Assembly: GCA_020912385.1 (NCBI GenBank)
Contig: CP087211.1
Coordinates: 1,798,001-1,862,000, forward strand
Reading direction: 5' to 3'
Length of the DNA stretch: 64,000 nucleotides
Origin: Neofusicoccum parvum
Lineage: Eukaryota > Ascomycota > Dothideomycetes > Botryosphaeriales > Botryosphaeriaceae
Shown here piece after piece: positions 55,552 through 57,262 of the stretch. The translations under genes and the position numbers were made by a program. Under the pieces are notes generated by a model, which was not told the origin of the DNA, searched no databases, and saw nothing but the letters and a program-made list of their open reading frames with translations. Every line of letters begins with the position of its first letter. Positions within the stretch are counted from its first letter, which is position 1.

Positions 55552-55811
55552 GGTGGGGCTGTGTGCTTCGACTAGGCGTTGGGCGCAGATATCGTGGAGT
55601 AGATGCTTCGGAGGGGTGAACGGCGTTGGAGCTCATGCGGGCAGCTGCGATGTCTTGGCGCGATCTCGCGCACGGGCCATCTGCACGGGCCCGCTCGCAA
55701 GCGAGGCCGCACCCAATTTTCCCTCCCGCGACTTCTTCTGAAAAAGACCAGACGTCCACGACCCTCCGTCCACCACTAACATCCAGCAGCACCGCCGGAA
55801 AGCTCTCGCAA
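55552..55811. promoter_or_regulatory. 260-bp divergent promoter SNF8 / RPL7
   Basis: The gap between the two start codons holds both promoters. CCAATTTTCC at 55713-55722 matches ten bases next to the palindrome of the SSF1/RRP3 promoter. The last 80 bp before RPL7 are C/A-rich, like a ribosomal-protein leader. Confidence 0.6.
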
Positions 55812-57262
55812 TGGCCGTTGTCAAGTCGTACGTCCTCCTCCGCCGCCCGCTCGGCTGAACCCAAGACGAGAATGCAGCTGGTCGTGGTTTTTCCTCGCTG
55901 GAGAAGGCTGCCGTTGCGCACCGCCCAGCTCGATACACACTCTTCCTCCCGGTCCTCGGTCCTCACTTGGTCGCGCGCGGCTTTTGAGAATGCGAGGCTG
56001 GGGTTTTGGGGCTGAAGACGATCGTCTTCTCCCTTAAATCGAAATTGCCGTACACAGTCGTGCAGCTGGGTGATTCCACGCTCGCATTGAGTACGCGCAC
56101 TTCTTCTCGAGCGCTCTGCTCGAGGTGTTGTCGATTGAGATCACACAGTCTACTGCGCATTGCCGCGGTGGACTGCTCATCGATCAAAGAAAAGTTCGCC
56201 GTCGAGTCCAATCTTCAGTCGGGAATGCCGCACTTGCTGCAGTTCTCGTCTGGGAGCAAGCCTTTGCTGCTCTGCTCACCACCACCCACCAGACTGCTGA
56301 CATTCTCTCTTGGGTGATATAGTACCGTTCCCACCAAGGACCAGGTCCTGGTCCCTGAGACCCTGCTCAAGAAGCGCAAGACTCAGCAGAAGGACCACGA
56401 GAGCCGTGCTGCCGACCTCCAGAAGAAGCGCGACGTAAGTACAGTCCTTCTCCATTGTTTGGGTATTCCGGAGAAGCAGGGATCTAGTGATGATAGCAAC
56501 CAACCAAGACGACTAGACTTTCGGGTCGATGCTGTCTCTACGTTAACCATCTTTCGGGACTGATTATGTCCTCTTCTCCGGGATATTCTAAGCGCAGTCG
56601 ACATCTGTTCAGCAAGCTAACAGCACTCTGCACAGGCCAACAAGAAGAAGCGCGAGGTCATCTTCAAGCGCGCCGAGTCCTACGTCAAGGAGTACCGCGA
56701 TGCTGAGCGCGAGAAGGTCCGCCTTCAGCGCGTCGCCAAGCAGGAGGGCTCCTTCTACGTCCCGGCCGAGCCCAAGCTTGCCTTCGTCGTGCGCATCAAG
56801 GGTATCAACAAGATCGACCCCAAGAAGCGCAAGACCCTCCAGCTTCTCCGCCTGCTCCAGATCAACAACGGCATCTTCGTCAAGCTTACCAAGGCTACCA
56901 CTGAGATGCTGAAGATCGTCGAGCCCTACATCGCCTACGGTTACCCCAACCTCAAGTCCGTCCGCGAGCTTGTGTACAAGCGCGGTTACGGCAAGATCAA
57001 CAAGCAGCGCATCCCGCTGACCGACAACGCCATCATCGAGGAGCACCTCGGCAAGTTCGGCATTGTCTGCATTGAGGACCTGATCCACGAGATCTACACC
57101 GTTGGCCCCAACTTCAAGCAGGCCAGCAACTTCCTCTGGCCCTTCAAGCTGTCCAACCCCACTGGTGGCTTCCGCCCCAGGAAGTTCAAGCACTTCATCG
57201 AGGGTGGTGACCTTGGCAACCGTGAGGACCACATCAACGCCCTCATCAGGCAGATGAACTAA
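55812..57262 (+). CDS. rpl7: 60S ribosomal protein L7 (uL30)
   Basis: Three exons, 55812-55828, 56323-56434 and 56636-57262, with introns of 494 and 201 nt, encode 251 residues. The 17-nt first exon gives MAVVKS, joined to [19 protein letters not shown], the standard fungal L7 start. The rest holds the L30-like core ([60 protein letters not shown]) and ends [14 protein letters not shown]. Both introns interrupt the N-terminal extension, as in yeast RPL7 genes. Intron 2 contains a box C/D snoRNA. Intron 1 is long for this genome and carries a 16-base perfect palindrome at 56014-56029. Codon use is biased towards C-ending codons, as expected for high expression. Confidence 0.97.
56465..56584 (+). 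ncRNA. Intronic box C/D snoRNA (snR39/snR59/snR39b-like) in RPL7 intron 2
   Basis: Box C GTGATGA at 56487-56493 and box D CTGA at 56560-56563 are 66 nt apart. A 12-bp external stem (56465-56476 with 56573-56584; one G-U pair) brings them together. Immediately upstream of box D, ACCATCTTTCGGG (56546-56558) is complementary over 13 nt to the universally conserved CCCGAAAGATGGT segment of 25S/28S rRNA. By the D+5 rule it would direct 2'-O-methylation of the G in CCCG, which I place at yeast 25S G805. Yeast RPL7A and RPL7B introns host snR39 and snR59, whose target (A807) lies in the same segment, so the host-guide association appears conserved. Core about 56484-56566; exact ends not determined. 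Confidence 0.88.

What the first reader, a model, noticed from the sequence alone, without database searches (positions are those of the whole stretch)
56465..56584. RPL7 intron 2 encodes an rRNA 2'-O-methylation guide with a 12-bp external stem
Box C, box D, a 13-nt antisense element against the conserved CCCGAAAGATGGT of large-subunit rRNA, and a long closing stem all fall inside one 201-nt intron. The D+5 rule predicts the G of CCCG (yeast G805 as I recall, the snR39b site) rather than A807, the site of the yeast RPL7-intron snoRNAs. If right, the host-intron relation is kept while the methylated base differs. Upstream, CTTTCGGGTC (56518-56527) is a second 10-nt complement to the overlapping GACCCGAAAG, so a D'-linked guide may act two ways on one site.
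Basis: partly seen in the sequence, partly recalled or inferred. Interest (0 to 1): 0.75.

Follow-up and report, generated by a model that had tools for sequence, protein, structure and literature searches.

The report
RPL7-intron methylation-guide snoRNA, ordinary
An intron of a fungal ribosomal-protein gene very probably encodes a small guide RNA that marks one base of the large ribosomal RNA; this pairing of gene and guide is already known in fungi, so the find is a useful annotation rather than a surprise.

Summary
Intron 2 (56435-56635, 201 nt) of a complete RPL7 gene contains box C (56487-56493), a 13-nt antisense element (56546-56558), box D (56560-56563) and a flanking stem of 16 contiguous pairs rather than 12. 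Rfam snR39 aligns end to end, below its gathering score (28.4 of 40 bits). D+5 points to the base equal to yeast 25S G805. Printed Entamoeba sequences support the register: the G805-type guide has the same spacing, the A807-type guide is two nucleotides shorter. "Kept host, shifted target" is not clearly new: N. crassa CD47 (intronic, D guide, 16/0) is published for Gm785, equal to yeast Gm805; the Rfam snR39 consensus carries the G805 spacing; and the RPL7 intron position, tied to snR59/39, is published as kept in 82% of fungal species. The "second guide" CTTTCGGGTC lies in a predicted hairpin with no D' box directly 3', so I do not read it as a guide, though shuffles rarely give such a match (13 of 20000). 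A weak candidate with A807 spacing lies elsewhere in the genome. Expression, methylation and relatives' DNA could not be tested. A new, ordinary member of a known kind.

The parts
55811..57262 (+). RPL7 (uL30) gene: exons 55811-55827, 56323-56434, 56636-57262
   Evidence: Open 251-aa reading frame over three exons; Pfam Ribosomal_L30_N and Ribosomal_L30 over cut-off; best PDB chains named 60S L7, best E 4.8e-135
56435..56635 (+). RPL7 intron 2, host of the snoRNA
   Evidence: GTAAGT...CTAAC...CAG, 201 nt, frame kept across the junction
56461..56476 (+). 5' arm of external stem
   Evidence: 16 contiguous pairs with 56573-56588
56573..56588 (+). 3' arm of external stem
56487..56493 (+). box C GTGATGA
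   Evidence: aligned to box C of Rfam snR39
56511..56516 (+). GACTAG, putative D' region
   Evidence: aligned to the GACUAG block of the Rfam snR39 consensus; the D' assignment is inferred
56516..56527 (+). GACTTTCGGGTC, hairpin-forming stretch holding the 10-nt second complement (56518-56527)
   Evidence: local hairpins predicted; no CUGA-like box directly 3'
56527..56532 (+). CGATGC, putative degenerate C' box
   Evidence: aligned to GCaAUGUUGU of Rfam snR39; the C' assignment is inferred
56546..56558 (+). D-linked antisense element ACCATCTTTCGGG, register of yeast G805
56560..56563 (+). box D CTGA
56617..56621 (+). branch-point-like CTAAC; branch A 57 nt downstream of box D

Best explanation
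RPL7 intron 2 encodes a box C/D snoRNA of about 77-90 nt. Shown by sequence: the host intron, boxes C and D, a 13-nt antisense element one base upstream of box D, and a 16-pair external stem, with no good terminal stem next to the boxes. Inferred: after splicing and debranching the external stem holds boxes C and D together so that the core proteins can assemble, exonucleases trim the ends, and the D guide pairs with the CCCGAAAGATGGT segment of the large-subunit rRNA and directs 2'-O-methylation of the base equal to yeast 25S G805 (N. crassa G785). The second complement most likely belongs to the internal hairpin between D' and C' and is not a working guide.
For: Full-length alignment to Rfam snR39 (28.4 bits; E 0.017 on 1.6 kb, 0.0021 on the intron). 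Guide and box D letters identical to the Rfam SNORD2 consensus over CAUCUUUCGGGACUGA. Register: the C that pairs with G805 lies at D+5, as in the printed G805-type Entamoeba snoRNA and unlike its A807-type one. N. crassa CD47: intronic, D guide, Gm785, 16/0. RPL7 intron position kept in 82% of fungal species and tied to snR59/snR39 (PMC8476143). First base of the intron to box C is 52 nt; 41-60 nt is reported as the usual distance from 5' splice site to snoRNA in N. crassa. External stem rare in shuffles.
Against: Below the Rfam gathering score (28.4 of 40), no match at gathering threshold in the window, and the whole-genome search with RF01197 at E 0.001 did not report it. Likeness to snR39 outside box C and guide is modest: 95 of 5000 shuffles score as high locally and 199 of 5000 globally. 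The snoRNA body folds no better than shuffles (z 0.79, 154 of 200 as good). rRNA target not readable in this assembly. The literature assigns the yeast RPL7-intron snoRNAs to A807. Orthologs of snR39 and snR59 were not found in three Candida-clade species (PMC5033589), so the association is not universal in fungi.
Confidence: 0.85

Rival explanations
1. The intronic RNA guides the base equal to yeast A807, as the literature says for the yeast RPL7-intron snoRNAs snR39 and snR59, and the D+5 count misleads here.
For: Yeast snR39/snR59 are assigned to A807, and the Rfam snR39 consensus has the same spacing as this RNA, so if that consensus reflects the yeast RNA and the yeast assignment is right, this one could act likewise.
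Against: The printed A807-type guide of Entamoeba is two nucleotides shorter before the box, while its G805-type guide has exactly this spacing. N. crassa CD47 is assigned to Gm785, the G805 equivalent.
Confidence: 0.07
2. Both halves of the snoRNA guide the same region: a D'-linked CTTTCGGGTC and the D-linked ACCATCTTTCGGG.
For: 10 contiguous pairs with the target; only 13 of 20000 shuffles of the interior do as well. With an irregular D' box CGAT its fifth base would also face G805.
Against: No CUGA-like box directly follows (GATG does). In the Rfam alignment it lies between the D'-like GACUAG and C'-like AUGUUGU blocks. It forms predicted local hairpins. The two guides would compete for one site.
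Confidence: 0.08
3. The 16-pair stem is an RNase III substrate: cleavage frees the snoRNA before splicing and lowers RPL7 mRNA, coupling guide RNA and protein levels. This would add to the guide function, not replace it.
For: A review passage says that in S. cerevisiae Rnt1p matures snR39 and snR59 from the RPL7A and RPL7B introns and that this prevents splicing (PMC8708148). The stem here is long and rare in shuffles.
Against: The loop it closes is the whole snoRNA, not the short tetraloop of usual Rnt1 substrates (recalled). An external stem is also the known aid for snoRNAs without a terminal stem (Darzacq and Kiss 2000, title seen in a reference list, paper not read). In Fusarium, intronic SnR39 falls when the debranching enzyme is deleted, which fits splicing-dependent release.
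Confidence: 0.15
4. Chance assembly or a decayed snoRNA without function.
For: Rfam score below gathering; no expression data.
Against: Guide plus box D plus box C plus external stem in the RPL7 intron, where other fungi carry an snR39/59-type snoRNA.
Confidence: 0.03

Closest known systems
N. crassa snoRNA Nc CD47 (26S Gm785; homolog snR39b)
   Same: Box C/D, intronic, D-linked guide, target equal to yeast G805; 75 nt and 16/0 match as printed
   Different: Its host gene and letters were not seen. The table marks it N, R (northern, reverse transcription) but its asterisk footnote says annotated before and not detected by experimental methods
Yeast snR39 / snR59 (Rfam RF01197), second intron of RPL7A / RPL7B
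   Same: Host gene and intron number; Rfam consensus aligns from box C to box D with the same guide and spacing
   Different: Below gathering score; literature target A807, D+5 target here G805; yeast sequences themselves not seen
snR39b / SNORD2 (Rfam RF01299), Gm805 / human Gm1509
   Same: Guide plus box D letters and predicted base
   Different: 17.9 bits against a cut-off of 37, and the alignment runs out of the snoRNA, so the layout is not that of SNORD2
Intronic box C/D snoRNAs that lack a terminal stem and use an external stem (Darzacq and Kiss 2000, recalled)
   Same: Weak terminal pairing, strong intron-borne stem
   Different: Processing not tested here

Membership tests
Box C/D methylation-guide snoRNA | box C RUGAUGA and box D CUGA in order and spacing | tested here: met
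   56487-56493 and 56560-56563, 77 nt overall
Box C/D methylation-guide snoRNA | antisense element of 10-21 bp directly upstream of D or D' | tested here: met
   13 pairs against a recalled conserved LSU segment; own rDNA not found in the assembly
Box C/D methylation-guide snoRNA | terminal stem next to boxes C and D (usual, not obligatory: 60% in Entamoeba) | tested here: not met
   No terminal stem in the fold of 56483-56568; an external stem 56461-56476/56573-56588 is present instead
Box C/D methylation-guide snoRNA | expressed stable RNA bound by the core snoRNP proteins | not testable with these tools
   needs small-RNA sequencing or pull-down
snR39 (RF01197) | score over the gathering cut-off of 40 bits | tested here: not met
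   28.4 bits, E 0.017 and 0.0021, model 1-95 of 95
snR39 (RF01197) | position in the second intron of RPL7 | tested here: met
   yeast host introns
snR39 (RF01197) | sequence likeness outside box C and guide | tested here: inconclusive
   local score reached by 95 of 5000 shuffles and 82 of 4987 window pieces; global score by 199 of 5000 and 82 of 4986
snR39 (RF01197) | methylates A807 | tested here: inconclusive
   D+5 predicts the G805 equivalent, but the RF01197 consensus gives the same prediction, and methylation was not measured
snR39b / SNORD2 (RF01299) | guide register for G805 | tested here: met
snR39b / SNORD2 (RF01299) | score over the gathering cut-off of 37 bits with the family layout | tested here: not met
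   17.9 bits, span 56530-56614 leaves the snoRNA

The most novel reading that the evidence does not exclude
The RPL7-intron snoRNA lineage is at root a Gm805 guide, and the guide for A807 is a separate gene in this fungus (candidate at G000:C6:1680920-1681009, apparently intergenic, A807 spacing). That would be the reverse of the yeast arrangement as the literature gives it, or would mean that the A807 assignment of yeast snR39/snR59 needs a direct test, because the Rfam snR39 consensus also has the G805 spacing.
Probability: 0.2. Interest if true: 0.4.

Novelty: new member of a known kind. Interest (0 to 1): 0.2.

Why it matters
It adds a probable snoRNA to this genome and fits the published view that RPL7 and an intronic guide RNA stay together over long times. 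It also points at a small, testable inconsistency: the guide spacing of the Rfam snR39 consensus predicts G805, whereas the yeast RPL7-intron snoRNAs are assigned to A807.

Tried and rejected
Rfam at gathering threshold over the whole window: 0 matches. Whole-genome searches with RF01197 and RF01299: no report at E 0.001; nothing rang in the control genomes either, so these say nothing about absence. Other guides to this site in the genome: CATCTTTCGNNTGA 6 places (control 2), CTTTCGGGNCTGA 7 places (control 2), two box-C-anchored patterns 7 places (control 7) and 6 places (control 3). I read all of these in context; apart from the RPL7 intron, only L088 has an exact box C, the guide core and a CTGA next to it. 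L088 was missed because its gap (69 nt) exceeds that pattern's. L088 has no snoRNA match in Rfam, no terminal stem, no fold signal (z -0.04, 88 of 200 as good) and only 9 Watson-Crick pairs, so it stays a weak candidate. DNA of relatives: RPL7 in viral contigs gave 13 pattern stretches, none confirmed. The guide pattern gave 5 stretches in viral contigs and 79 in genome contigs, taken as background and not opened. One search translated exon 3 in a wrong frame; the gene model is. Full-text search for the guide letters listed 10 papers; of these I opened one, the Entamoeba paper. The fungal snoRNAome paper (PMC5824354) is not held. A search asking for 4 of snR39b, snoRNA, A807, G805, guide found 0 papers, but papers often write Am807 and Gm805, so it was largely blind.

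Full report
What is there. The window holds a complete RPL7 (uL30) gene on the + strand: exons 55811-55827, 56323-56434 and 56636-57262, giving a 251-aa protein with both Pfam L30 domains over cut-off. Its closest chains in the PDB are 7r81 and 7olc, named 60S L7 proteins, which I recall as N. crassa and Chaetomium ribosomes; the genome, 44 Mb in 18 contigs, is therefore probably that of a filamentous ascomycete. Intron 2 is 56435-56635, 201 nt, with GTAAGT, a CTAAC branch site and CAG.

Anatomy of the intron. Box C GTGATGA is at 56487-56493, the antisense element ACCATCTTTCGGG at 56546-56558, and box D CTGA at 56560-56563, 77 nt from box to box. Of 2000 shuffles of the two flanks, 2 gave 14 or more contiguous pairs, 18 gave 12 or more, and 2 gave as stable a duplex. 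The stem-bounded element folds better than its shuffles (z -2.62, 2 of 200 as good), while the snoRNA body alone does not (z 0.79, 154 of 200 as good) and 56436-56637, nearly the whole intron, only mildly (z -1.22, 21 of 200). That fits a C/D RNA whose ends are held by an intron stem. Box C starts 52 nt after the intron's first base and box D ends 72 nt before the intron's end; the N. crassa paper reports 41-60 nt as the usual distance between 5' splice site and snoRNA (passages read).

Is it more than chance? The pattern CCATCTTTCGGGNCTGA occurred in 79 stretches of 257 billion bases of prokaryote genomes, about 0.014 expected per 44 Mb by my arithmetic. In this genome 7 places match the shorter CTTTCGGGNCTGA (2 for the reversed control), and only the RPL7 one has an exact RTGATGA in the 130 nt upstream. 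The Rfam snR39 model aligns over its full length, 28.4 bits, E 0.017 on 1.6 kb and 0.0021 on the intron, below its gathering score of 40; the whole-genome search with the same model did not report it at E 0.001. Likeness to the snR39 consensus outside box C and guide is modest (95 of 5000 shuffles as good locally, 199 of 5000 globally; 82 of 4987 and 82 of 4986 window pieces), so orthology rests mainly on guide, boxes and host intron.

Which base? In the guide ...CATCTTTCGGGA|CTGA the fifth base before box D is the C that pairs with the G of CCCG. That this spacing belongs to the G805 class was checked against sequences printed in PMC3542256 (passages read): the Entamoeba RNA listed for G926 (yeast G805, snR39b) reads CATCTTTCGGGT|CTGA, the same spacing, and the one listed for A928 (yeast A807, snR39) reads CCATCTTTCGT|CTGA, two nucleotides shorter. 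A script applied the same count to the six sequences compared. The prediction is therefore the G805 equivalent. The target could not be read in this genome. Exact searches for the LSU segment gave 0; one-mismatch searches gave 2 places for the LSU segment (control 2) and 1 for a universal 18S segment (control 2); these three loci hold no rRNA family at gathering threshold, and the LSU family search did not complete. rDNA is missing from the assembly or withheld.

Is the shift of target new? Not clearly. The N. crassa paper (PMC2780460, Background section with Table 1 read; other passages) lists Nc CD47, intronic, D guide, 26S Gm785, 16 pairs and no mismatch, homolog snR39b; Am797 in the same table is listed as homolog of snR60 (yeast Am817), so G785 equals G805. 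Four box C/D RNAs bear an asterisk (CD38, CD42, CD47, CD48) and four Rfam annotations are named in the text (snR39, snR52, snR60, snR61), so CD47 is very probably the RNA that Rfam called snR39; that is my inference. The footnote says that asterisked RNAs were annotated before but not detected by experiment, while the table marks CD47 as N, R. Its host gene was not seen. No guide for Am787, the A807 equivalent, is in that table. PMC8476143 (passages read) reports the RPL7 intron position in 82% of fungal species and links it to snR59/snR39. PMC9606315 (passages read) reports an intronic SnR39 in Fusarium that falls when the debranching enzyme is deleted; its host gene is not named in those passages. 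Against universality, PMC5033589 (passages read) failed to find snR39 and snR59 in three Candida-clade species. PMC5295604, PMC5199042 and PMC2806949 (passages read) give A807 for yeast snR39/snR59 and, in the last two, G805 for snR39b.

A small puzzle. The Rfam snR39 consensus reads CATCTTTCGGGG|CTGA, the G805 spacing, although the literature gives A807 for yeast snR39. I could not see the yeast letters or the Rfam seed, so this stays open. In this genome a separate candidate with A807 spacing lies at G000:C6:1680920-1681009 (L099 3921-4010): GTGATGA, then after 69 nt the guide core CATCTTTCG, then A and CTGA. I took it as intergenic from the open frames around it without testing for a gene. 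It has no snoRNA match in Rfam, no fold signal (z -0.04, 88 of 200 as good), and by my arithmetic such an arrangement would arise by chance with a probability of one or two percent. It is a lead, not a result.

The second complement. CTTTCGGGTC (56518-56527) does match ten bases of the target region, and only 13 of 20000 shuffles of the interior do so, so it deserves a test. Against a guide role: it is followed by GATG and not by a CUGA-like box; in the Rfam alignment it lies between the blocks that I read as D' and C'; and it forms predicted local hairpins (-1.3 to -5.5 kcal/mol depending on the ends).

Mechanism. Shown: host gene, intron, boxes, guide, stem. Inferred from known C/D snoRNA biology: splicing, debranching, assembly of the core snoRNP on boxes C and D held together by the external stem, exonucleolytic trimming, pairing with 25S rRNA and methylation of the G805 equivalent by fibrillarin/Nop1. 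A role of RNase III, as a review states for yeast snR39/snR59 (PMC8708148, one passage read), is possible in addition.

Verdict. A probable, ordinary intronic box C/D snoRNA: by prediction it works like snR39b and sits where snR39/59 sits. It is not filed as a formal member of either Rfam family because the gathering scores are not met. Interest is low to modest.

Noticed in passing
L099:3921-4010 (G000:C6:1680920-1681009, outside the window): Apparently intergenic candidate box C/D RNA with GTGATGA, guide core CATCTTTCG, A and CTGA, in the register of an A807 guide; weak.
   Followed up: partly
window 56483-56565: The Rfam snR39 (RF01197) consensus has a guide spacing that predicts G805 by D+5, although yeast snR39/59 are assigned to A807.
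   Followed up: partly
window 55811-56322: The first RPL7 exon is only 17 nt and is followed by a 495-nt intron with no Rfam match at gathering threshold.
   Followed up: no
G000 (whole assembly): No rDNA was found with a conserved LSU segment or a universal SSU segment; it seems to be missing or withheld.
   Followed up: partly
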